Assembly: GCA_903854805.1 (NCBI GenBank)
Contig: CAINXK010000013.1
Location: forward strand, 16,411-80,410
DNA from: an uncultured Anaerolineae bacterium
Lineage (GTDB): Bacteria; Chloroflexota; Anaerolineae; Anaerolineales; Villigracilaceae
Direction: 5' to 3'
DNA length: 64,000 nucleotides
Numbering within the stretch: the first letter of the stretch is position 1; every line of letters starts with the position of its first letter. Made by a program: the position numbers and the translations under genes. Of this stretch, positions 25,161 through 34,634 are shown piece after piece. The notes under the pieces were generated by a model, which had not been told where the DNA came from, searched no databases, and was given only the letters and a program-made list of their open reading frames with translations.

Positions 25161-25901
25161 ATGGAACTCTATTTTATTCGTCACGGACAATCACAAAATA
25201 ATGCCAATGTGCAAAACCCTGAGTATAGGGAGAGCCCAGACCCTGAGCTAACTGAAATTGGGTCTGCGCAAGCCAACTACCTGGTTGAATTTTTCAAGAA
25301 AAACCAGGTGCTTGATCAAAAAGCTGGATGGAATATCCAAAATCAGTATGGATTTGGTTTTACTCACATCTACACCAGCCTGATGATCCGAGCAGTAGGC
25401 ACGGCTGCCCCCACCGCTCGCGTCCTGGGGATCCCGTTCACAGCATGGCCAGAAATACACGAGGAAGGGGGCATTTTCAACCGGGACGATAAAACCATCC
25501 GGAGCGGGCTGCCAGGAAAAACACGCTCCTACTTTGAACAGAATTTCCCTGAATTAAGCTTACCAAATGACCTGGATGAAACCGGCTGGTGGAACCGGCC
25601 CTTCGAGGCTGAGGACCAACGCCAGGCGCGCGCTGAAAACTTCCTGGCTGATCTGCTGGCGCGCCACAGCGACCGGGATGACCAACCAGAAGATCGCGTC
25701 GTTTTATTCAGCCACGGCGGTTTTTTTGTGCGCCTGGTGTGTGCCATGCTAAAGCTTCCCTGGCGACAGGCCACCCATGACCTGAAATCATGGTTTTTAT
25801 TGAACAATGGCTCAATCAGTCGTTTTGACATCCACCAGAATGAACTGACAATCTGTTATTTGAACCGCACAGATCATTTTCCTTCTGGCCTGATCACATA
25901 A
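25161..25901 (+). CDS. Histidine phosphatase family protein
   Basis: 246 residues. The phosphoglycerate-mutase-like fold shows RHG at 7-9 (catalytic His8), the partner Arg in the SLMIRAVGTA segment and the second His in VVLFSHGGF. Members are phosphatases or mutases that go through a phosphohistidine; substrate not predictable. It follows the kinase gene at 42 bases and could be co-transcribed. A 42-base palindrome lies after it. Confidence 0.88.
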   Translation: MELYFIRHGQSQNNANVQNPEYRESPDPELTEIGSAQANYLVEFFKKNQVLDQKAGWNIQNQYGFGFTHIYTSLMIRAVGTAAPTARVLGIPFTAWPEIHEEGGIFNRDDKTIRSGLPGKTRSYFEQNFPELSLPNDLDETGWWNRPFEAEDQRQARAENFLADLLARHSDRDDQPEDRVVLFSHGGFFVRLVCAMLKLPWRQATHDLKSWFLLNNGSISRFDIHQNELTICYLNRTDHFPSGLIT

Positions 25902-26027
25902 CAAACTTGAACGGCTTGCCATCGGCGAAAAATTGTTCGAATTCGGAAAAGTCATATACTTGCAAAAAATTGTGCCGTGGCTGATCCGAGCATAGAAATA
26001 AACCAGTTAATTCACATCTTCCACAGT

Positions 26028-26069
26028 ACCCAGAACCCCATTCGGCTGTAGCCGAATGGGGTTCTGGGT
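26028..26069. repeat. Near-perfect 42-base palindrome
   Basis: Twenty-base arms (26028-26047 and 26050-26069) are exact reverse complements with two bases between them; the left arm starts ACCCAGAACCCC. No T run follows, so it is either an unusual terminator for the phosphatase gene or a small mobile palindromic element. Confidence 0.7.
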
Positions 26070-26185
26070 TAAGAATTGCTATCAGATTGGGGTTTTTACA
26101 CTGATTTTTCAAATATTTGGCCAAAAAACAGTACTTAAGTAATGCTAGACTCGTGGAACGAAAAGCTTTACTATTGTGGTACGCT

Positions 26186-26196
26186 TGGTCTGACCA
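26186..26196. promoter_or_regulatory. Candidate GntR-type operator upstream of the ubiquitin-like operon
   Basis: TGGTC-T-GACCA is a perfect palindrome 18 bases before the E1 ATG. FadR-type GntR regulators bind TGGTNNNACCA-like sites, and the E1 itself begins with a GntR-type HTH. Outer GTGGT (26176-26180) and ACCAC (26201-26205) are near-symmetrical extra half-sites. Confidence 0.55.
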
Positions 26197-26214
26197 CCAA
26201 ACCACAGGAGACTT

Positions 26215-27855
26215 ATGAAAATTCAACCGGTTGCCCGTCACTCACTGGCCGAGGCCGTGGCAGGAAAAATAGCCAGCACATTATTAGATGGAAGCCTGAA
26301 ACCTGGAGCTCAACTGCCCCCAGAAAGAGAATTAATCAGCCAATTGGAAATCAGCCGGGCTACACTGCGCGAAGCACTCAAGGCCCTGGAAGAAAATCAG
26401 TTGATCGAATCCCGGCCAGGGGTTGGATGGTTCGCATGTGCTATCAGCGCAAAGAATGTCTCGCAAGCACACGAACTGGCTCGCGAAGTGGCAACACATC
26501 CAGCTCAGCGCAAAGCCGGGGATGAGCCCAAAACTGGGCCGCGCCGTGTGCCAATTGCGCCCGAAAAACCGATCCACATTCCCAACCTGCGTACCGATCG
26601 CCTCGGTACCTTTGAATTTATTTCCTGGTGGGAACGCGATAAGGTTGCAGATGCAAAAGTGATGGTGGTGGGAGCTGGAGCCCTTGGAAATGAAGTCATC
26701 AAGAACCTGGCACTGATGGGCATTGGAAATATTTTTATTGTTGACTTTGACACTATTGAAGCCGCCAACCTGAGCCGCTCGGTGCTCTTCCGCGAATCAG
26801 ACAATCAGCGCAGCAAAGCAGAAGTGGCGGCAGCGCGAGCAAAATCAATCAACCCACAATTAAATGTGCAGTACCTAAACGGTGATATCACATCCGGACT
26901 GGGATTAGGAGTCATCCGAAGAATGGATGTTGTGATTGGCTGCCTGGATAATCGCGAAGCCCGATTGGCAGTCAACCGCTTCTGTTATTGGATGAACAAA
27001 CCCTGGGTCGATGGAGCCATTCAAGAACTGCTGGGCCTCGCGCGCGTCTTTGTCCCCGGAAAAGGCGCCTGCTACGAATGCACTCTGACAGAAGCAGCCA
27101 TCCGCGATCTCTCACTGCGCTATTCCTGCCCACTGCTGGCCCGCCAGAACATTCTGCTCGGCAAAGTTCCGACCACTCCAACGATTGCTTCGATCATTGG
27201 TGGCATCCAATCCCAGGAGGCCCTCAAACTGATCCATTCAATGCCGGTGGATGCAGGGAAGGTCACACATTATAACGGGCTGAACAATGAGATGCACACC
27301 ACCGCCTATGTGCCCCGCGAAGACTGCGAGAGCCATTGGACCTATGGTGAGATTATCGAACTGCCCGCCCGCGCCGAAAGCACAACCCTTGAAGACCTGC
27401 TGCGCATCGTTCGGGCAGATCTCGGGCCGCAAGCAATCATCGAATTGGACCAGGAGCTTTTGACCTCACTAGATTGCCCGGTCTGCCATACCAGCGAGCA
27501 AATTTTTCTTCCATTAAGTGAGGTTAGTTTTGAAGAAGGCCATTGTGCTGTCTGCGGCACATTGCGTGACACAGTGCTTACCCACTCAATTACCGGCGGA
27601 GAAAATTTTCTGCACCGCACCCTGGCGAGCATTGGCGTTCCGTCCTTGCATATTCTGCGCGCCAATAATGGAGAAGAGTATCGCTTTTACGAATTAACCG
27701 GCGACCTTTCTGATGCGCTGCACTTCAAGCATTTTACAAAAACCGAAGAACTGGCTTCCGGGCCTGCACGCGGACGTATCCGCATCAAAGGTGATTTACA
27801 ACCATCAGACACACTCCACATCAAGGTTCACGGGCGCGTAAAACTGCGCAATTAG
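26215..27855 (+). CDS. E1-like ubiquitin-activating enzyme fused to a GntR-type HTH
   Basis: 546 residues with CAGGAG before the ATG. Residues 1-75 are a winged HTH of the GntR family (LPPERELISQLEISRATLRE, then ALEENQLIESRPGVGWF). Residues 125-340 are a ThiF/E1 adenylation domain: nucleotide loop GAGALG at 153-158, acidic Asp177, ANLSRSVLF at about 184-192 (the Arg-finger region), Lys201, and CLDNREAR at 243-250. CYEC (286-289) then YSCP places Cys305 where UBA3/UBA2-type E1 enzymes have the catalytic Cys (ECTL..C). The C-terminal part has CPVC (421) and CAVC (444), a likely zinc site. It should adenylate the C-terminal Gly of the ubiquitin-like protein and pass it to the E2. DNA-binding fused to E1 is unusual. 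Confidence 0.92.
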   Translation: MKIQPVARHSLAEAVAGKIASTLLDGSLKPGAQLPPERELISQLEISRATLREALKALEENQLIESRPGVGWFACAISAKNVSQAHELAREVATHPAQRKAGDEPKTGPRRVPIAPEKPIHIPNLRTDRLGTFEFISWWERDKVADAKVMVVGAGALGNEVIKNLALMGIGNIFIVDFDTIEAANLSRSVLFRESDNQRSKAEVAAARAKSINPQLNVQYLNGDITSGLGLGVIRRMDVVIGCLDNREARLAVNRFCYWMNKPWVDGAIQELLGLARVFVPGKGACYECTLTEAAIRDLSLRYSCPLLARQNILLGKVPTTPTIASIIGGIQSQEALKLIHSMPVDAGKVTHYNGLNNEMHTTAYVPREDCESHWTYGEIIELPARAESTTLEDLLRIVRADLGPQAIIELDQELLTSLDCPVCHTSEQIFLPLSEVSFEEGHCAVCGTLRDTVLTHSITGGENFLHRTLASIGVPSLHILRANNGEEYRFYELTGDLSDALHFKHFTKTEELASGPARGRIRIKGDLQPSDTLHIKVHGRVKLRN

Positions 27856-27858
27856 AAA

Positions 27859-28695
27859 ATGGCAGTACGGACAACCACGATGAGCGACTCGAGCGTACAA
27901 CCAGCTTTACCTTTGCGATCTGAATTTCCACGCAAAGTAACCTTGCTATTTTTGCTCATCACCGATACGGCCGTCGGCATATTCTTTTTATTCAGGTTCA
28001 GACCTGAAACCCACCTGCTGGTGCGCCTGATCTTTGCAGATTTGGTCATCGGCATCGTGGCTGGGTTTGCAGCCCGGATCTTATTTCGAAGACGAGCCTG
28101 GTTTATCCGCTTTATCTCAGCGGCAGCAGCTGTGATCATCGGGCTACTCATCTTGGGAGTTCTGACAAGATTCCGACTGGGTTTTGGCCCTCTCTATTTC
28201 TGGCGTAACACCATCGATTGGTCTGGCCTGGCACATATCACCCTTGGCTTAAACTGCATGCTGCTGGCAATGCAGGCATGGTCAAAACCAAGGCAGGCAA
28301 GGACAAATCAAAGTTCAGCAACGCCAGGCACAGCTACACCAGCCCCAGCACAGGTTCACTCACGGACAAGACCAAAACGGAAAAGGACAAAATCAGCGCT
28401 TTCCAGTGGGACGCCTTCCAACAATGAAACCACCCGGACAGAGCATCGCGCAAAACCTATTATTACCAGGAAGCGAAACGCAAAAACAGAAAGCAAATCA
28501 GTTCCCAATCTTTTTCACCGCAAGCCGCAAGTCCGCTTATCACTGGTCGAGAAACACCTTTGCCCGTACTGTCTGGAGCCTGTTGTTCAAAAAGATCCGC
28601 GCGGGATCGTGGAATGTGACATCTGCCACACCCTGCACCACGGAGATTGTTGGGCCATTGCCGGATACTGCCAGGTGCCGCACTATACAGCCTAA
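27859..28695 (+). CDS. Membrane RING-type protein, probable E3 ligase
   Basis: 278 residues, starting 3 bases after the E1 stop. Four hydrophobic segments (about 28-47, 53-75, 82-103, 124-141) are followed by a basic, low-complexity linker (about 142-225) and a C-terminal binuclear treble clef: C235-x2-C238, C253-x2-C256, H260/H261 with C264, then C271 and H275. This matches the bacterial RING families that comparative genomics has linked to ubiquitin-like genes. It would hold the E2 at the membrane and give substrate choice. A structural RING without ligase activity is possible. The ATG at 27880 is an alternative start. Confidence 0.85.
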   Translation: MAVRTTTMSDSSVQPALPLRSEFPRKVTLLFLLITDTAVGIFFLFRFRPETHLLVRLIFADLVIGIVAGFAARILFRRRAWFIRFISAAAAVIIGLLILGVLTRFRLGFGPLYFWRNTIDWSGLAHITLGLNCMLLAMQAWSKPRQARTNQSSATPGTATPAPAQVHSRTRPKRKRTKSALSSGTPSNNETTRTEHRAKPIITRKRNAKTESKSVPNLFHRKPQVRLSLVEKHLCPYCLEPVVQKDPRGIVECDICHTLHHGDCWAIAGYCQVPHYTA

Positions 28696-28723
28696 GTCAT
28701 TGTTTTAGCAACAAGGAGAGAGC

Positions 28724-29569
28724 ATGCCCGATTTAAATATCACCATCATTCTACCCAGCGGCGGCGCCCGCAATGCCGATATCCCCGACGATGTCGCCAT
28801 CCACGATCTGATGACCGAACTGGCCTCACTACTGCAGCTCCCAACGGTCGGCCCGGATGGTCGCCCTATGGGTTATCGCCTGGACAGCAAAGGCCTGGGC
28901 CGCGAACTGAAAGAGACAGAGACGCTATCCTCGGCTGGAGTGCCCAATAACGACCGTCTGATGCTTACGGCCGATATCACTGCCGGTGGTGTTGACCTGA
29001 ACCAGAGCCCAAGAATTCGGCGATTACGCGCAGACGCAGAGCTAATGCGTGAATTGGCTGCCCGCAGCGACCTGATCTCCTTCACCGCGCAATCCCCGCA
29101 ACCCAACGTTCCGCCAGATAGATATATCATAACCTTCAAATGCAAAAGTATCGTCGGAGTGGATCTACTCGGAAAACCAAAATACAGCGAACATCACCAG
29201 GTTGAGATCTATCTGCATAACCAGTACCCTCAACGTTGGCCTGGGATGAAATGGATGACACCCATCTGGCATCCCAATATTAACCATTTGAATGGGACAG
29301 TCTGCATCGATGCCGCCTGGTGGACAGCCAGCCGCTCGCTCGACCGGCTCGTGATTATGCTGGGTGAAATGCTCCAATGGAAAAACTTCCACGATGACCC
29401 AACCAAACCTCCTTTTCCCTGGGACGCGGATGCTGCGCGCTGGTCACGTGAATATCGCAAGAAAAATCCTGATGCTTTTCCTCTGGATAAACGCGAACTG
29501 CTGCGACCAGAACGAATCAAGATTATCGAAGAAGCCGCAAAACCCAGGCCAAAAATTCACCTCAAATGA
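28724..29569 (+). CDS. Ubiquitin-like domain fused to an E2-like conjugating enzyme
   Basis: 281 residues with AAGGAGAG before the ATG. Residues 1-89 are a beta-grasp domain close to the free ubiquitin-like protein encoded downstream (58 of 83 aligned residues identical, counted by eye without gaps). From about 95 to 245 the protein is a canonical UBC fold: the YP of the beta-meander (168-169), HPN at 183-185, catalytic Cys194 in GTVCID, then a Trp pair and LVIMLGEMLQWKNFHDDP. All residues expected of an active E2 are present. The fused copy ends ITAGGVDL, so it cannot be released as a free C-terminal Gly without cleavage; it may act as a built-in non-covalent partner. Confidence 0.93.
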   Translation: MPDLNITIILPSGGARNADIPDDVAIHDLMTELASLLQLPTVGPDGRPMGYRLDSKGLGRELKETETLSSAGVPNNDRLMLTADITAGGVDLNQSPRIRRLRADAELMRELAARSDLISFTAQSPQPNVPPDRYIITFKCKSIVGVDLLGKPKYSEHHQVEIYLHNQYPQRWPGMKWMTPIWHPNINHLNGTVCIDAAWWTASRSLDRLVIMLGEMLQWKNFHDDPTKPPFPWDADAARWSREYRKKNPDAFPLDKRELLRPERIKIIEEAAKPRPKIHLK

Positions 29570-29702
29570 TATCTTCCGCTGCTGCATGTTGTACATGCAC
29601 AGAATATTATTCCAGGACTGAACCCAGTCCTTCTCATCCCGCCTGACCCCATTTTCATCGAGGGTCAGCCAGCGGGGCCCATAGAAAAAGGAGAAATAAA
29701 CC
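29570..29702 (+). other. Structured intercistronic region between E2 and Ubl genes
   Basis: 133 bases with three separate hairpins: TGCATGT / ACATGCA (29583-29599), AGGACT / AGTCCT (29614-29631) and CTGACCC / GGGTCAG (29643-29668). None has a T run. It may stabilise or process the downstream message so that the ubiquitin-like protein is made in excess. Confidence 0.5.
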
Positions 29703-29969
29703 ATGTCAGACACACCTGTAACAATCGTACTTCCTTCTGGTGGCAGCCGAAACGCAGAAATCCCCAACGACGTACCCGTAAAAGAGTTGCTCCCTGAGCT
29801 AACCACCTCGCTCGAGCTGCCAACCACGGGCCCAGATGGGCGACCAGTATCCTACCGGTTGGACAGCAAAGCATTAGGTCGTGAGCTTAAAGAAGTTGAA
29901 ACCCTCTCGCAGGCCGGCGTACCCGAAGGGGACCGGCTGATGATGACTGCTGATGTAACTGCCGGGTAG
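29703..29969 (+). CDS. Free ubiquitin-like protein
   Basis: 88 residues with AAGGAG before the ATG. The beta-grasp pattern is clear: VTIVLPSGGSRNAEIPNDVP as the first hairpin, a helix (VKELLPELTTSLELP), then YRLDSKALGRELKEVETL and a final GDRLMMTADV strand. It belongs near the YukD/EsaB-like ubiquitin fold. The last residues are TAG, with a single C-terminal Gly, exactly at the position of Gly88 in the E2-fused copy. No residue follows the Gly, so it would need no maturation before E1 activation. It is the expected modifier of this operon. Confidence 0.9.
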   Translation: MSDTPVTIVLPSGGSRNAEIPNDVPVKELLPELTTSLELPTTGPDGRPVSYRLDSKALGRELKEVETLSQAGVPEGDRLMMTADVTAG

Positions 29970-30033
29970 CTCATCCAGCCCACCTACCCCCAGCTTTTCG
30001 GGGCGGTCAGATCCGGGATCCATTCAACACTTG

Positions 30034-30073
30034 CCTCTCACCTGCGGTCATTACCAGGCCGCAGGGAGAGGGG
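30034..30073 (+). repeat. Intercistronic hairpin
   Basis: Arms CCTCTCACCTGCGG and CCGCAGGGAGAGG pair with one bulged base, between the ubiquitin-like and JAMM genes. It may be an attenuator or a processing site. Confidence 0.5.
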
Positions 30074-30097
30074 TAAGCATAAAGCACACGAGCACAT

Positions 30098-30751
30098 ATG
30101 AAGCCCAAACATTCCATCCGAATCCAACCTATAGAAGTTCAGAAACCAAACCCGGCGCCCATGCCCATCGAGACGGCTCAGCATTGGCGTTCTCCTTTCG
30201 ACGGAAATGGATTGGCAACAGCGGTAAAGGTCTTTGTGACCCAGCCAGCTTACGCGATCATGTGTGTCCACGCCAGTGGCGATATGGAACAAGAGACAGG
30301 CGGCATGCTGGTAGGACAGTGGTGCGCGGATATTGATACAAACGAAGAGTTTATTGTTGTCGAGCACGCTCTTCCGGCCCGTTATACCCGCCAGGGAAGT
30401 GTTTATTTAACCTTTACACAAGATACGATCGTAACAATACACGACGAAATCGAAAAACGCTATCCGGGCAAACAGATTGTCGGTTGGTATCATACCCACC
30501 CCAAAATGGGCATTTTTCTCTCGCATTATGACACCTGGCTGCACAGCAATTTTTTCCCTGAACCCTGGCAGGTGGCACTGGTGATCGAACCGCACAAAAA
30601 GCTGGGCGGTTTGTTTATCCGCCAGACCAACGGTGAGTTTGATCCTTCGCGTTATTTCGGGTTTTATGAATTAGAAGATAACCCCCAATGGAGTATCGTA
30701 CATTGGAACAATTTACACCGCAGTTTTGAAAACACCCATGAAGGAGGCTAG
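30098..30751 (+). CDS. JAB/MPN-domain (JAMM) deconjugating peptidase
   Basis: 217 residues. The JAMM metal site is complete: Glu66 in QETGGMLVG, then H132-x-H134-x7-S142-x2-D145 (YHTHPKMGIFLSHYD). These residues bind zinc and cut isopeptide or peptide bonds after a C-terminal Gly, as in Rpn11. Since the free modifier already ends in Gly, its main job is probably removal of the modifier from targets, or cutting after the Gly-Gly inside the E2 fusion. The start ATG has no strong ribosome binding site. The gene is 6 bases before the FHA gene. Confidence 0.92.
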   Translation: MKPKHSIRIQPIEVQKPNPAPMPIETAQHWRSPFDGNGLATAVKVFVTQPAYAIMCVHASGDMEQETGGMLVGQWCADIDTNEEFIVVEHALPARYTRQGSVYLTFTQDTIVTIHDEIEKRYPGKQIVGWYHTHPKMGIFLSHYDTWLHSNFFPEPWQVALVIEPHKKLGGLFIRQTNGEFDPSRYFGFYELEDNPQWSIVHWNNLHRSFENTHEGG

Positions 30752-30757
30752 TATTTT

Positions 30758-31618
30758 ATGAACAGACGCATGCGAACCTATTATTACGCAGTTTTGGGCG
30801 CAATTGGTGGCCTGGTTGGCTGGAAGGTCAGTGATCTTTTAGGACTTTCCTTTGTCTCCAACATATATCTAAGTGAGGCAATCGTTGGCGCGCTGATCGG
30901 GCTGAGCATTGGCTTTTTCATCGGTATCACCGAAGGCGCACTGACTCGCAACCCTGTACAGGCGGGAAAATCCGGACTGACGAGCGGCGTACTTGGCCTG
31001 ATTGCCGGAGCCATTGGGCTGCCCCTCAGCGAACTTCTTTTTCAGGGCGTAGGCGCTGGCTGGATCGGCCGCATGTTAGGCTGGGGCATCTTTGGCTTGC
31101 TGATCGGGCTGGCCGAAGGAGTGCTCGGAAAAAACCAGGCCTGGAAAGGTATGTTGGGCGGTCTGCTAGGCGGCGCATTGGGGGGTCTCCTACTGGAAAG
31201 TACCCATACCTGGCTCAAAGATCCGCTGATTGGAAAGGTGGTCGGGCTCATCCTGCTCGGGGCTTCTACCGGGGCTTTTATCTCATTGATCGTAGTGCTG
31301 CTTTCAAAAGCCTGGTTGGAAGTTGCGTCGGGCAAACTAAAGGGCACGGAATTCATTCTGGATAAGTTCATGAAACAAGGCGGCCCAGCCATCGCGATTG
31401 GAAGCTCGGCACTTAAATCTGAGATCGTCTTTCCAGATCCGGATATTGCCCCACAGCACGCCATGCTCACCAGTGATGGACTCGTTTTCTCCCTCAAAGA
31501 CATGAGCATGAACGGTACCTTTATCAACAATAAACGTATTGAGCGCTCCCAACTCTCCAACGGTCAGCGCATCCGCATGGGAAACACCGAGTTGGTTTAC
31601 CACGAAAAGAGGTCCTAA
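30758..31618 (+). CDS. Multi-pass membrane protein with C-terminal FHA domain
   Basis: 286 residues with GGAGG 8 bases upstream. The first 190 residues are hydrophobic and Gly-rich (GIFGLLIGLAEGVLG, GMLGGLLGGALGGLL), probably packed glycine-zipper helices. Residues 210-283 form an FHA domain: the phosphopeptide loop IGSSALKSEIVF, PQHAM and MNGTFINNKRI with the conserved Asn. FHA domains bind phosphothreonine. It could bring phosphorylated targets to the membrane near the RING protein, using the kinase encoded just downstream. It overlaps the VWA gene by one base. Confidence 0.85.
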   Translation: MNRRMRTYYYAVLGAIGGLVGWKVSDLLGLSFVSNIYLSEAIVGALIGLSIGFFIGITEGALTRNPVQAGKSGLTSGVLGLIAGAIGLPLSELLFQGVGAGWIGRMLGWGIFGLLIGLAEGVLGKNQAWKGMLGGLLGGALGGLLLESTHTWLKDPLIGKVVGLILLGASTGAFISLIVVLLSKAWLEVASGKLKGTEFILDKFMKQGGPAIAIGSSALKSEIVFPDPDIAPQHAMLTSDGLVFSLKDMSMNGTFINNKRIERSQLSNGQRIRMGNTELVYHEKRS

Positions 31619-32745
31619 TGAACTCAACAATTCGACGATCATGCCAGGCTCTCACGATCCTGTTCGTAACTTTGATGGCAATCTCCCCGGTGGTATCTGT
31701 CAGGGCACAGGATGATACCCAGATTCGAATTACCCAGGTTGATAACTCAAAATTTCCTGAAGTCACAGTATATGTCTCGGTAACCAACGCGGCAGGGGAA
31801 CCGGTTGGCATCGACCCCAGCAAGATCCAGCTCTCTGAAAACGGAAAGCTGATGAATACCAAGGATGCTGGCGGCGCTGGAGAAATCGGCCCGCTGACAA
31901 CCCTGCTGGTAATCGATGTCTCAGGCAGCATGCTGCAGGCTGGCAAGCTGAACGGAGCCAAGGAAGCTGCCAGAGCCTACGTTGAACAAATGCGCCCAGG
32001 AGACCAGGCCGGCTTGGTGACCTTTAACACCGAGGTCAGGTATGTACAACCGCTAACCACAGACTTGAAAGAGTTAACCGCAGCAATTAACAAATTGAAT
32101 GCGTATGAAGATACGGCCATGTTTGATGCGCTTGCCCAGGGCACCCAGATACTGAAGGATGTTACCGGACGTAAAGCCATCATTGTTCTGACTGATGGGC
32201 TTGACAACGTCAGCAAAAATACACCAGATCAGGTCATCGAGGGCATTGGCCCAATCGGTTTATCAATTTCCACCATCGGCCTGGGAGACCCGAAGAAAAC
32301 GGGCGTAAACTCAGGGTTAGACGAAACTGGTCTGCGGACCTTCTCGGAACGGGCCGGAGGAATATATTCCTACGCCAACGATCCAGACACCTTGCAGGGC
32401 TTATATCAACTATATGCACGCGCCTTGCAAAGCGAATATCGTATCATATACACATCCCCAGCCACACTACGCGATGGCGCCAACCGTACCCTGAGCATTA
32501 ATCTGGACAGGGCAGGTGGTGTATCCAGCAGCAGCACACAAGTGGAATACAATCCGGGTGGGGTACTGCCAGAAGTGGCACAATCTGCCTCATGGCCCAT
32601 CTTTGGAGCCTTGCTTGCCGGACTGTTGGTGCTTTTATTCATTCCCTTCGCTCTCGGGAACCTGAAGAAACAGCCGGCCAACTCATCAGCAAGCCCAAAA
32701 TCTGGCCCGGCTCCAACAAAAAAGCCGAATATCAAGCTGAAATAA
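31618..32745 (+). CDS. Secreted VWA-domain protein with C-terminal anchor
   Basis: 375 residues. A signal peptide (about 1-30, ending SVRA-Q) is followed by a beta-rich domain, then a VWA domain (about 98-275) with an intact MIDAS: DVSGS, the Thr in DTAMFDA and Asp in VLTDGLDN. One membrane helix (about 325-345) and a short basic tail end the protein. VWA domains bind other proteins through a metal ion. It is translated from the previous gene's stop (TAATG), so it is tightly tied to the operon. Its ligand is unknown. Confidence 0.88.
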   Translation: MNSTIRRSCQALTILFVTLMAISPVVSVRAQDDTQIRITQVDNSKFPEVTVYVSVTNAAGEPVGIDPSKIQLSENGKLMNTKDAGGAGEIGPLTTLLVIDVSGSMLQAGKLNGAKEAARAYVEQMRPGDQAGLVTFNTEVRYVQPLTTDLKELTAAINKLNAYEDTAMFDALAQGTQILKDVTGRKAIIVLTDGLDNVSKNTPDQVIEGIGPIGLSISTIGLGDPKKTGVNSGLDETGLRTFSERAGGIYSYANDPDTLQGLYQLYARALQSEYRIIYTSPATLRDGANRTLSINLDRAGGVSSSSTQVEYNPGGVLPEVAQSASWPIFGALLAGLLVLLFIPFALGNLKKQPANSSASPKSGPAPTKKPNIKLK

Positions 32746-32820
32746 AGCCTGCCCGAACCCGCCGGACCACCTGACAAGGAACCGGCAACCCAGGACACAA
32801 AAATCAGAAGGACACACTCA

Positions 32821-32855
32821 TAGTAGAAACGCCCGCGAACCGGGCGTTTCTACTA
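32821..32855 (+). terminator. Stem-loop at the end of the operon
   Basis: A 15-bp perfect stem (32821-32835 and 32841-32855, arms starting TAGTAGAAACG) encloses a 5-base loop. There is no T run on the plus strand, so it may be a processing or partial termination point between the VWA and kinase genes. Confidence 0.55.
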
Positions 32856-32867
32856 TGAACGGGATGA

Positions 32868-32873
32868 TATAAT
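32868..32873 (+). promoter_or_regulatory. -10 box directly before the kinase gene
   Basis: TATAAT lies 9 bases before the ATG at 32883 and no Shine-Dalgarno is present, so the kinase may be expressed from a nearly leaderless message. I see no good -35. Confidence 0.45.
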
Positions 32874-32882
32874 TTCATCATA

Positions 32883-33962
32883 ATGGCTGAACCCGCCCTA
32901 CTAAACAACCGTTACCAACTGCTCGAACCGCTCGGCACAGGCGGAATGGCACAGGTATACCGTGCCCGCGACCTGATGCTGGAGCGGTATGTTGCTATTA
33001 AAATGCTGCGGGCGGATTATTCTGCAGACCCCACCGTGCAAATACGCTTCCGGCAGGAGGCCAAATCAGCCGCCAATCTTTCGCACCCCAATATCGTTAC
33101 CGTACATGATTTCGGTTTTGATCAGGGGAAATTATTCATCGTGATGGAACACATCCCCGGCACCAACCTGAAGGTTATGATCGACAACCTTGGCAAATTT
33201 GGGCCGGAGGACGCACTTCCAATCATTATCCAGGTTTGTGCCGGACTGGGATATGCACATCGGGCTGGAATTGTCCACTGCGATGTAAAACCACACAATA
33301 TTCTGATCACGCCAGACCGCCGGGTAAAGGTCACCGATTTCGGCATTGCCCGGGCGATTTCGGGGATCCACCCGGACGAGCACAACGATGTGGTTTGGGG
33401 ATCGCCGCTATACTTTTCGCCAGAACAGGCCTCCGGGCAAGCTCCATCGCCAGCATCAGATGTCTATTCTTTAGGCGTGGTCATGTATGAAATGCTCGCT
33501 GGACGTCCACCCTTTGTAGCAAAAACGCCAGAAACACTGGCGCGCCTGCACCGTGAAATGGCACCTCAGGCACCAAGTACGTTCAACCCACGGATCAAGC
33601 CAGAATTGGAACAGATCATACTGAAGGTACTCTCAAAAGAGCCTTCAGCACGATACCGAACCGCAGATCAGCTTGGGCGCGTTCTGACAACTTTCGGGCA
33701 ACACAGGCCCGCTGCACCTCGGTCCGTTGCTGCGGCGACCTCCAGCCCACGCCCCAGCGCCGCCACAGTGGCCGTCAGGCCCACCAATTCTCAGCCTATT
33801 CCAGTATTTTCAGAACCTGCGGCCGAACCTGAACCCTACGAAGAAGCAGAAGGAATGGATTGGATTTCCATCGGACTTGGACTGGTGGCACTGGCAGCTG
33901 TAGGCGGTCTGATACCCTTGTGGCTGGCCATATTCTTCCGTTGGAATAATGCGCTGCCCTAA
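32883..33962 (+). CDS. Membrane-anchored Ser/Thr protein kinase
   Basis: 359 residues. A complete Hanks-type domain fills 1-275: Gly-rich loop GTGGMAQVY (18-26), Lys40 in VAIKML, catalytic loop HCDVKPHNIL with Asp134 and Asn139 (HCD in place of HRD), DFG at 152-154 and SPEQ after the activation loop. A Pro/Ala linker leads to one membrane helix (about 333-352) with almost no outside domain. It follows the ubiquitin-like operon by 137 bases and could supply the phosphothreonine read by the FHA protein. Its stop TAA is followed by the rpe ATG. Confidence 0.95.
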   Translation: MAEPALLNNRYQLLEPLGTGGMAQVYRARDLMLERYVAIKMLRADYSADPTVQIRFRQEAKSAANLSHPNIVTVHDFGFDQGKLFIVMEHIPGTNLKVMIDNLGKFGPEDALPIIIQVCAGLGYAHRAGIVHCDVKPHNILITPDRRVKVTDFGIARAISGIHPDEHNDVVWGSPLYFSPEQASGQAPSPASDVYSLGVVMYEMLAGRPPFVAKTPETLARLHREMAPQAPSTFNPRIKPELEQIILKVLSKEPSARYRTADQLGRVLTTFGQHRPAAPRSVAAATSSPRPSAATVAVRPTNSQPIPVFSEPAAEPEPYEEAEGMDWISIGLGLVALAAVGGLIPLWLAIFFRWNNALP

Positions 33963-34634
33963 ATGCCTACAAATGTGATTGCCCCATCGATTCTTTCTGC
34001 TGACTTCTCCCGCTTGGGGGTTGATCTGGTTGCCTGCGAAAACGCGGGAGCTGATTGGATTCACATCGATGTAATGGATGGGCACTTTGTTCCGAATATG
34101 ACGATTGGACCGCTGGTGGTAGCAGCCTGCCGGCAGGCTACAAAACTTCCGCTTGATGTGCATCTGATGGTCGAAAAACCAGAAAATATGCTGGAAGCCT
34201 TTGCCAAAGCAGGTGCAGACCGGCTAACCGTGCACGTAGAAACCTGCCCGCATTTGCACCGGACCATTCAACAAATTAAATCATTAGGCATAAAAGCTGG
34301 CATTACGCTCAACCCGGCCACCCCAGCAATCATGCTGCAAGAAGTCTACGCTGAGGTGGACCTGGTACTGGTAATGACCGTCAATCCGGGTTTTGGTGGA
34401 CAAAGTTTTATATCGGGAATGCTTCCCAAGGTTGCCGGCATTCGACAGGCACTCAACCAGATTGGTTCACTTGCCTGGCTGGAAGTGGACGGCGGTGTAT
34501 CAGAAAAAACATTACCGGCACTGCTAAGCGCCGGAGCAAATGCCTTTGTTGCCGGGAATTCCGTCTTCAACCACCCAGGTGGAATTGCGAACGGCATTAA
34601 ATCTTTAAAAGACTGCATCGAGCTGAATACCTGA
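33963..34634 (+). CDS. rpe: Ribulose-phosphate 3-epimerase
   Basis: 223 residues, a TIM barrel. The enzyme signature is complete: IAPSILSADFSRLG, IHIDVMDGHFVPNMTIGP with the metal His and catalytic Asp, LDVHLMVEKPE, VNPGFGGQSF and LEVDGGVSEKT with the second catalytic Asp. It interconverts ribulose-5-phosphate and xylulose-5-phosphate in the pentose phosphate pathway. It directly follows the kinase gene (TAAATG), a frequent kinase-rpe pairing in bacteria. Confidence 0.96.
   Translation: MPTNVIAPSILSADFSRLGVDLVACENAGADWIHIDVMDGHFVPNMTIGPLVVAACRQATKLPLDVHLMVEKPENMLEAFAKAGADRLTVHVETCPHLHRTIQQIKSLGIKAGITLNPATPAIMLQEVYAEVDLVLVMTVNPGFGGQSFISGMLPKVAGIRQALNQIGSLAWLEVDGGVSEKTLPALLSAGANAFVAGNSVFNHPGGIANGIKSLKDCIELNT

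What the first reader, a model, noticed from the sequence alone, without database searches (positions are those of the whole stretch)
26215..32745. Complete eukaryote-like ubiquitin-type operon in a bacterium
E1, RING E3 candidate, canonical E2, free modifier and JAMM deconjugase are encoded in one operon with membrane FHA and VWA proteins. All catalytic residues looked for are present (E1 Cys305, E2 HPN and Cys194, JAMM E-HxH-S-D). Comparative genomics has described bacterial E1-E2-JAB-Ubl sets, and some are antiphage (Bil-type), but I do not know this full arrangement with a membrane RING, HTH-E1 and phospho-reading partners.
Basis: partly seen in the sequence, partly recalled or inferred. 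Interest (0 to 1): 0.95.

Follow-up and report, generated by a model that had tools for sequence, protein, structure and literature searches.

The report
Ubiquitin-like operon run by its E1
Anaerolineae bacteria carry a seven-gene set that resembles our ubiquitin machinery, and its first enzyme is fused to a DNA-binding domain that likely switches the set's own genes, so one protein would both start protein tagging and control how much of the machinery is made.

Summary
At 26215-32745 seven same-strand genes encode an E1, a membrane RING-type protein, an E2, a free YukD-type modifier, a JAMM protease, a membrane FHA protein and a VWA protein. The order recurs in 25 of 30 related loci (four are cut, one lacks FHA and VWA); the catalytic residues checked are invariant (48-50 sequences each). 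Three things were missed. (1) The E1 carries a GntR-type DNA-binding domain, and the palindrome TGGTCnGACCA sits just before it: exact in 29 of 29 discovery regions and 13 of 20 fresh loci (the other 7 differ by 1-2 bases), absent before 11 E1 genes lacking the domain. The E1 therefore likely represses its own operon, as BirA does. (2) The "canonical E2" is a modifier-E2 fusion that keeps the modifier's end, TAG, at the joint (49 of 49), a likely JAMM cleavage site. (3) E2 and VWA tails, and some E1 tails, share an IKLK-like motif (44 of 49 E2s, 0 of 398 flanking reading frames). Conjugation, repression and cleavage are untested. E1/E2/RING/JAB/modifier operons are a known prokaryotic kind; this is a new variant.

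The parts
26186..26196 (+). Predicted operator TGGTCTGACCA, 29 bases before the E1 start; lies inside an outer inverted repeat TGTGGT (26175-26180) / ACCACA (26201-26206)
   Evidence: Read directly; exact TGGTCnGACCA in 29 of 29 upstream regions, at most 2 mismatches in 20 of 20 fresh loci, 0 of 11 E1 genes without the DNA-binding domain
26215..27855 (+). E1-type activating enzyme with N-terminal GntR-type winged helix (residues 11-73), ThiF adenylation domain (135-371), catalytic Cys305, predicted ubiquitin-fold-like C-terminal domain (about 380-500), low-confidence tail with RIRIK/HIKVH/RVKLR motifs
   Evidence: Pfam; PDB sequence matches; model and fold comparison; invariant residues; tail
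27859..28695 (+). Membrane-anchored RING-type protein, predicted E3: three hydrophobic segments (26-47, 50-77, 79-110), C-terminal C-C-C-C-H-C-C-H zinc domain
   Evidence: Prok-RING_1 in 27 of 28 sequences scanned; ligands 50 of 50; hydropathy
28724..29569 (+). Modifier-E2 fusion: YukD-type domain (1-88, ends TAG) joined by a short linker to a UBC domain with HPN 183-185 and Cys194; C-terminal KIHLK
   Evidence: Pfam; UBE2K-type PDB matches; model; junction
29703..29969 (+). Free ubiquitin-like modifier, 88 aa, ends TADVTAG at the stop
   Evidence: Pfam; ends in 48 of 50 rows; 76-99% identical in 29 of 30 discovery loci, L026 not scored as a free modifier there
30098..30751 (+). JAMM metalloprotease (predicted deconjugase and processing enzyme)
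   Evidence: Pfam; closest solved relative by sequence is the Caldiarchaeum Rpn11 homologue 6fjv, 8.6e-08; motif 48 of 48
30758..31618 (+). Membrane protein with C-terminal FHA domain
   Evidence: Pfam; hydrophobic segments
31618..32745 (+). VWA protein: N-terminal hydrophobic segment (8-30), VWA domain, C-terminal membrane segment (322-351), short basic tail ending NIKLK
   Evidence: Pfam; hydropathy; tail motif

Best explanation
The operon encodes an E1, a membrane RING-type protein, a modifier-E2 fusion, a free modifier ending in a single glycine, a JAMM protease and membrane FHA and VWA proteins; together they likely attach the modifier to proteins at the cell membrane and remove it again, and the E1, which carries a GntR-type DNA-binding domain, likely represses its own operon at the TGGTCnGACCA palindrome found just before its start codon. 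Steps: (1) inferred: the E1 adenylates Gly88 of the modifier and takes it onto Cys305; (2) inferred: it passes the modifier to Cys194 of the E2; (3) inferred: the membrane RING protein brings the loaded E2 to targets near the membrane, with FHA as a phosphothreonine reader and VWA as an outward-facing sensor; (4) inferred: JAMM removes the modifier and also cuts the modifier-E2 fusion after its conserved TAG; (5) inferred from shown anatomy: E1 dimers sit on the palindrome beside the promoter and shut the operon down. (6) speculative: the IKLK-like tails of E2, VWA and many E1s bind the acidic modifier, as SUMO-interacting motifs bind SUMO with the charges reversed, and hold the set together.
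For: Anatomy and invariant catalytic residues. Gene order in 25 of 30 discovery loci and 19 of 20 fresh loci, the twentieth cut by a contig end. E1 fold into the C-terminal domain. The GntR domain is listed for all of the best 120 homologues shown, out of 7979 scored under 1e-60; Arg38, Arg48 and Arg52 are 49 of 49; PdhR is the nearest solved relative, 3.7e-12. Operator: 29 of 29 exact in discovery; in 20 fresh loci 13 exact, 6 with one and 1 with two mismatches, against about 2% of shuffled 60-mers; 0 of 11 E1 genes without the domain (Pfam finds no GntR in these 11). Of 20 other TGGTC[A/T]GACCA sites examined in four carrier genomes, 19 lie inside reading frames and 1 before a gene whose start looks GntR-like by eye, so the target is likely the operon alone. 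BirA precedent: an HTH on an adenylating protein ligase that represses when its adenylate accumulates (PMC4016012, passages). TAG kept in 49 of 49 fusions; 3 of 12 relatives' free modifiers carry short extensions after TAG, as pro-ubiquitin does in Caldiarchaeum (PMC5654768 passage). Tail motif 44 of 49 E2s, 36 of 45 VWAs, 18 of 49 E1s against 0 of 398 flanking reading frames; free modifier mean net charge -7.4, E2 tails +6.1 over 20 residues.
Against: No activity has been measured. The relatives are closely related (E1 58-85% identical to the window's), so conservation counts are not independent events; the shuffles do not correct for relatedness, although no palindrome apart from the operator was shared by more than 8 of the 29 regions. 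L028 and L030 could not be tested for the operator. The promoter scan found nothing at the window's operator. L026 has no FHA or VWA in its right flank. The tail motif was defined after seeing the tails; in the fresh loci it holds for 19 of 20 E2s and 14 of 19 VWAs but only 3 of 20 E1s, and the 398 control frames are mechanical ORFs. In unfused relatives the modifiers are near neutral and the E2 tails are not basic, and one of the two E2-type genes of L067 does not end in the acidic motif. The AlphaFold models are of middling confidence (mean pLDDT 67.0 and 67.6; the region round Cys305 is under 50) and the UBC half of the E2 model is weak. No degradation partner is known: Pup in 0 of 19 carrier genomes, proteasome family in 1 of 19, just over its cut-off. 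The single-Gly end (AG) differs from the GG of ubiquitin.
Confidence: 0.65

Rival explanations
1. It is a working conjugation operon, but the winged helix on the E1 does not regulate genes: it is a leftover or binds protein, as the winged-helix RRE domains of some E1-like peptide-modifying enzymes do.
For: Winged-helix domains with E1-like proteins can bind peptides (recalled; a paper on such a system, PMC10634744, was seen only in the listing). Relatives of the system do without the domain.
Against: The domain scores far above the GntR cut-off; arginines at the positions recalled as DNA-reading in FadR are 49 of 49; the palindrome stands before all 49 tested E1 genes that have the domain (42 exact, 7 with 1-2 mismatches) and before 0 of 11 that lack it.
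Confidence: 0.14
2. It is an antiphage system of the Bil or Bub kind that tags phage proteins.
For: PADLOC E1-E2 and JAB models match the E1 and the JAMM protein; known bacterial modifier systems are said to work mainly in phage defence (PMC12687455 passage). Presence is patchy: 62 full-length fusions in 301 genomes of the order. Outside one subgroup the operon has no fixed place: 3 of 20 fresh loci show the ribosomal-protein/lexA neighbours, and the window's copy does not.
Against: In 18 of 25 discovery relatives with at least 2.7 kb to the left it follows rplK-rplA-rplJ-rplL, and in 19 of 24 with at least 2.6 kb to the right it faces lexA, so in that subgroup it is likely inherited as a core locus rather than moved in defence islands. 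The E2 has the classical HPN histidine that 6d-type E2s lack (table; that 6d is Bil is recalled).
Confidence: 0.14
3. The modifier domain on the E2 is not a precursor to be cut off but a permanent docking domain, for instance to hold the E2 on the E1 or to hold the E2 closed. (This concerns one step of the main reading and is not exclusive of the rest.)
For: The fused domain is a lasting copy distinct from the free one in the 29 sequences aligned.
Against: Its last three residues stay TAG in 49 of 49, followed by a small residue in nearly all and a variable linker, which docking would not need; 3 of 12 relatives' free modifiers have short extensions after TAG.
Confidence: 0.35
4. It is a sulphur-carrier or cofactor pathway (ThiF/MoeB-like), as the automatic names 'adenylyltransferase/sulfurtransferase' say.
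For: Source names of homologues; NCBIfam ThiF/MoeB models match below their cut-offs.
Against: An E2 with HPN and Cys, a RING-type protein and an E1 that aligns with SUMO E1 into the C-terminal domain have no known role in sulphur transfer.
Confidence: 0.03

Closest known systems
Prokaryotic E1/E2/RING/JAB/YukD-modifier operons predicted by Burroughs, Iyer and Aravind 2011 (paper not held; recalled, title seen in reference lists) and E1/E2/JAB/modifier operons of Iyer 2006 (PMC1779556, passages)
   Same: Same roles encoded together; YukD-type modifier; Pfam family Prok-RING_1
   Different: GntR-E1 fusion with matching operator, modifier-E2 fusion beside a free modifier, FHA and VWA membrane partners and shared IKLK tails; whether Burroughs 2011 lists any of these I could not check
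Caldiarchaeum subterraneum ubiquitylation operon (PMC5654768, passages)
   Same: Ubiquitin, E1, E2, small RING and Rpn11/JAMM in one cluster; the JAMM here is nearest to its Rpn11 homologue by sequence; precursor trimming at the modifier's C-terminus
   Different: Archaeal; di-glycine modifier; no DNA-binding domain on the E1 in the passages read; small RING protein rather than a membrane one
Bil (6d type, recalled equation) and Bub systems
   Same: Bacterial modifier, E1, E2 and JAB protease in one operon
   Different: 6d-type E2 lacks the classical histidine that is present here; of 544 Bub operons 219 go with separate regulators CapW or CapH+CapP and 59 with CapK+CapS (PMC13373217 passages), here the likely regulator is part of the E1
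BirA, biotin protein ligase and repressor (PMC4016012, passages)
   Same: N-terminal HTH on an adenylating enzyme that couples a group to protein lysines and regulates the pathway's genes
   Different: Different enzyme and HTH families; likeness of logic only, not kinship
GntR/FadR-family regulators such as PdhR
   Same: HTH homology; palindrome of the FadR kind (FadR site recalled)
   Different: E1 enzyme in place of the usual effector-binding domain

Membership tests
Prokaryotic E1-E2-RING-JAB-modifier conjugation system | E1 adenylation domain with catalytic cysteine | tested here: met
   ThiF 2.5e-55; Cys305 49 of 49
Prokaryotic E1-E2-RING-JAB-modifier conjugation system | E2 with HPN and active cysteine | tested here: met
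   UQ_con 42.5 bits, cut-off 27; HPN and Cys194 49 of 49
Prokaryotic E1-E2-RING-JAB-modifier conjugation system | RING-type zinc domain | tested here: met
   Prok-RING_1 in 27 of 28 sequences scanned, the window's own match below cut-off; 8 ligands 50 of 50
Prokaryotic E1-E2-RING-JAB-modifier conjugation system | Beta-grasp modifier with C-terminal glycine | tested here: met
   YukD; ubiquitin-like fold of the fused copy; ends in single Gly in 48 of 50 rows, two explained
Prokaryotic E1-E2-RING-JAB-modifier conjugation system | JAMM metalloprotease motif | tested here: met
   48 of 48
Prokaryotic E1-E2-RING-JAB-modifier conjugation system | Covalent conjugates form | not testable with these tools
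   needs biochemistry
Bil (6d-type) antiphage system | E2 lacking the classical histidine | tested here: not met
   His183 present 49 of 49; definition from the PMC1779556 table; that 6d is Bil is recalled
Bub system | Sequence membership in Bub E1/E2/modifier families | not tested
   papers I recalled as defining it are not held
GntR/FadR-family repressor | GntR winged helix above curated cut-off | tested here: met
   65.8 bits against 27
GntR/FadR-family repressor | Palindromic operator at the promoter | tested here: met
   palindrome before the start codon; the promoter itself was not found by the scan in the window
GntR/FadR-family repressor | Ligand-binding C-terminal domain (FCD/FadR_C type, recalled) | tested here: not met
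   ThiF domain follows instead and no such family is listed
GntR/FadR-family repressor | Binds DNA and represses | not testable with these tools
   needs gel shift and reporter
Type VII (ESX) secretion YukD | ESX genes such as WXG100 beside the YukD gene | tested here: not met
   none among the ten genes scanned, 25161-34634; WXG100 over the cut-off in 3 of 19 carrier genomes; the window's own genome is not held
Pup-proteasome system | Pup and 20S proteasome in carrier genomes | tested here: not met
   Pup 0 of 19; proteasome family 1 of 19, just over cut-off; the window's own genome is not held

The most novel reading that the evidence does not exclude
A ubiquitin-activating enzyme that is itself the transcription factor of its ubiquitin system: charged or dimeric HTH-E1 represses the operon at TGGTCnGACCA, so the cell reads the state of its protein-tagging machinery straight into gene expression, and E1, E2 and a membrane VWA sensor are held together by a shared C-terminal IKLK tag that binds the modifier like a charge-reversed SUMO-interacting motif.
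Probability: 0.42. Interest if true: 0.92.

Novelty: new variant of a known kind. Interest (0 to 1): 0.8.

Why it matters
Ubiquitin systems are thought to have prokaryotic roots, but the bacterial ones worked out so far are said to be mainly antiviral (PMC12687455 passage). Here is a full E1-E2-RING-JAMM-modifier set, in one subgroup anchored between ribosomal-protein genes and lexA, with an E1 that likely controls its own operon. I recall no E1 described as a transcription factor, and none showed up in the listings of the searches made (open-licence papers only). One carrier, Pelolinea submarina MO-CFX1, is a named strain with a complete genome, so the targets of a bacterial ubiquitin-like system could be looked for directly, and the charged-E1-as-corepressor idea is testable with purified protein and a short piece of DNA.

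Tried and rejected
Sulphur carrier pathway, Pup-proteasome and ESX secretion were tested and not supported. A wider regulon for the HTH-E1 was looked for: TGGTCnGACCA was scanned in 10 genomes, 20 further TGGTC[A/T]GACCA sites in four of them were fetched, and 19 lie inside reading frames, the twentieth before a gene that looks GntR-like by eye, so I dropped it; sites in the other six genomes were not inspected. The adjacent kinase (32883-33962) was considered as a partner and dropped: one of 30 relatives' stretches shows it, about 7 kb away. The sigma-70 scan round the operon gave no more promoter-like sites than shuffles (7 against 6.5) and none at the operator; TATAAT-like elements before the palindrome are seen only by eye, in many relatives and not in the window. 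In the E2 fold comparison the modifier half filled the list, so the UBC half rests on sequence matches. A universal core locus was my first reading; the check in the fresh loci (3 of 20) cut it back to one subgroup, and I raised the odds of the defence rival from 0.10 to 0.14 and lowered the main ones slightly for that and for the E1 tails (3 of 20). Literature: Burroughs 2011 (PMC5938088), Ye 2026 (PMC12885553), Gong 2025 (PMC12145246), Chambers 2024 (PMC11476048) and one further id are not held; what I say of Burroughs 2011 is recall plus its title in reference lists. FadR contact residues and site, the RRE remark and the SUMO-interacting-motif comparison are recalled. Rows dropped before counts: L030 (E1 cut), L028 (no E1; E2 cut) and L029 (E2 frame breaks), L011 (modifier cut), L008 (JAMM cut), L015 and L029 (FHA), L021 (VWA). 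Loci L051-L060 (3.8 kb) were too short to test the operator and are left out of its counts. In the modifier table two rows are not complete free modifiers (L080, picked from the fused gene; L083, deletion), so 48 are counted.
Full report
OBSERVATION. Seven genes on the + strand from 26215 to 32745 lie 133 bases apart or less. Pfam gives GntR plus ThiF for the first, UQ_con plus YukD for the third, YukD for the fourth, JAB for the fifth, FHA for the sixth and VWA for the seventh; the second matches Prok-RING_1 below its cut-off, while 27 of 28 sequences scanned (window plus 27 relatives) match that family at E <= 0.01. Nearest solved relatives by sequence are UBA7 and UBA1 for the E1, UBE2K-type enzymes for the E2 profile and the Caldiarchaeum Rpn11 homologue for the JAMM.

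RELATIVES. A scan of one genome per species with the E2 gene gave 30 loci, titled as Anaerolineae/Anaerolineales, Villigracilaceae, Pelolinea or Chloroflexi/Chloroflexota and the like. Twenty-five of the 30 show E1-RING-E2-modifier-JAMM-FHA-VWA in that order; of these two (L020, L023) have a second JAMM match, two are cut at one end (L021, L030) and L029 has broken frames. Four more are cut by a contig end (L008, L011, L015, L028) and L026 shows no FHA or VWA. Full-length fused E2 genes (E < 1e-140 over both domains) occur in 62 of 301 genomes of the order, 11 of 298 of the class and 9 of 400 of the phylum, overlapping samples. Twenty fresh loci from the list, none of them among the 30, were fetched; 19 of 20 show all seven genes and the other ends at a contig edge.

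THE E1 IS LIKELY A REPRESSOR. Residues 11-73 are a GntR winged helix (65.8 bits, cut-off 27), nearest in the PDB to PdhR; the best 120 homologues listed, of 7979, all carry both domains. Before the E1 start codon lies a perfect palindrome. In the 29 upstream regions with enough sequence (window and 28 loci) TGGTCnGACCA occurs in 29, 26-37 bases before the start; elsewhere in these stretches it occurs once (L009). Thirty composition shuffles never put one five-base palindrome in more than 2 regions, and no real palindrome apart from the operator was shared by more than 8. In the 20 fresh loci 13 are exact, 6 have one mismatch and 1 has two, and in that one (L080) both ends changed symmetrically, CGGTCAGACCG; shuffled 60-mers reach two or fewer mismatches in about 2%. 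Of 11 E1 genes in which Pfam finds ThiF but no GntR, none has a site within two mismatches. Twenty other TGGTC[A/T]GACCA sites in four carrier genomes were inspected: 19 fall inside reading frames and one before a gene that looks GntR-like by eye. In the complete Pelolinea genome the A/T-centred site occurs once, at the operon. So the E1 likely acts on its own promoter only. Which state of the E1 represses here is not known.

MODIFIER ENDS AND THE FUSION. The free modifier ends TAD[V/I]TAG at the stop in the 48 complete rows. The E2 gene begins with a second copy of the modifier that keeps TAG at the same place in 49 of 49, then one residue, Gly, Ala or Ser in all but L083 (Lys), and a short variable linker. 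In 16 other genomes of the class sample modifier and E2 are separate genes, and G287 (L066) is a further split case. Of 12 such relatives' modifiers read, 8 end VTAG, L064, L065 and L066 carry a few residues after TAG, and L067 ends SAR with no glycine. I therefore think TAG is the JAMM cutting site and the fusion is a precursor; a permanent docking domain is the rival.

SHARED TAILS. E2, VWA and many E1s end in a short strand-like motif such as IKLK, IRLK or RVRLRD. A strict form in the last eight residues is present in 44 of 49 E2s, 36 of 45 VWAs and 18 of 49 E1s (32 of 49 in the last 60), and in 0 of 50 RING, 0 of 48 JAMM, 0 of 45 FHA and 0 of 398 flanking reading frames of 80 or more residues, some of which are surely not genes; the one hit among 50 modifier rows is the L080 row, which is really an E2. 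The form was chosen after seeing the tails; in the fresh loci alone it holds for 19 of 20 E2s, 14 of 19 VWAs and 3 of 20 E1s. The tails are basic (E2 +6.1, VWA +5.8 over 20 residues) and the free modifier is acidic (mean -7.4, range -11 to -1). In L066 the modifier is acidic (-6) and the E2 tail reads PPIRLKQP. In a second, distant system in Pelolinea (L067) the modifier is mildly basic (+2) and one E2-type protein ends DIEITVL, though the other ends IIIKK. In the unfused systems the modifiers are near neutral (-3 to +1) and the tails are not basic. This fits a modifier-binding tag like a charge-reversed SUMO-interacting motif, but it is a correlation across few independent cases.

PLACE IN THE GENOME AND FUNCTION. 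In 18 of 25 discovery relatives with at least 2.7 kb to the left the operon follows rplK-rplA-rplJ-rplL (with nusG before them in 17), and in 19 of 24 with at least 2.6 kb to the right it faces lexA (gene names by NCBIfam on one example each). In the 20 fresh loci only 3 show these neighbours, and the window's copy does not. So a fixed core place holds for one subgroup, which speaks for inheritance there, and not for the family. Carriers lack Pup (0 of 19), and 18 of 19 lack a proteasome-family protease by this search, so tagging likely signals or sorts rather than feeds a proteasome. The RING and FHA proteins have several hydrophobic segments and VWA one at each end, which points to events at the membrane.

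OLDER RELATIVES. Unfused systems (L061-L065, L068-L072) have separate modifier and E2 genes and two JAMM matches each; the E1, found in nine of the ten, has no winged helix. In L062, the one scanned gene by gene, a dynamin-like GTPase, a CAP protein and two Prok-RING_1 proteins lie in the same cluster. L066 looks intermediate: no winged helix, separate but overlapping modifier and E2 genes, two Prok-RING_1 matches, with VWA and FHA nearby.

KNOWN OR NEW. Prokaryotic E1/E2/RING/JAB/modifier sets are a known kind. I could read Iyer 2006 (passages) but not Burroughs 2011, which from memory predicts conjugation of YukD-type modifiers with RING proteins. In the listings of the searches made and the passages read I saw no ubiquitin-type E1 with a DNA-binding domain or operator. 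I file it as a new variant of a known kind.

Noticed in passing
window 32883-33962: A serine/threonine kinase gene follows the VWA gene on the same strand; a possible partner of the FHA protein, but in relatives it was seen only in L018, about 7 kb away.
   Followed up: partly
L067 (Pelolinea submarina, G001:C1:1477500-1494500): A second, distant conjugation system: E1, two E2-type genes, a modifier that ends SAR with no terminal glycine, JAMM, VWA and RING-like genes; one E2 tail is acidic.
   Followed up: partly
L061-L065, L068-L072: Unfused modifier systems with two JAMM matches each; in L062 a dynamin-like GTPase and a CAP protein lie just upstream, so they may be a membrane-remodelling variant.
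   Followed up: partly
L066 (G287): Intermediate operon: a modifier ending TAG-RQL overlaps the E2 start by four bases; a small RING protein has an array of LKVK-like motifs in its N-terminal half.
   Followed up: partly
L009:2951-2961: A second exact operator copy 231 bases before the E1 start.
   Followed up: no
L026: E1-RING-E2-modifier-JAMM without FHA and VWA in the right flank, a natural test of whether the membrane partners are needed.
   Followed up: no
L083 (G377:C1:500-11500): A deletion removes the end of the free modifier and the start of JAMM; natural loss or assembly error.
   Followed up: partly
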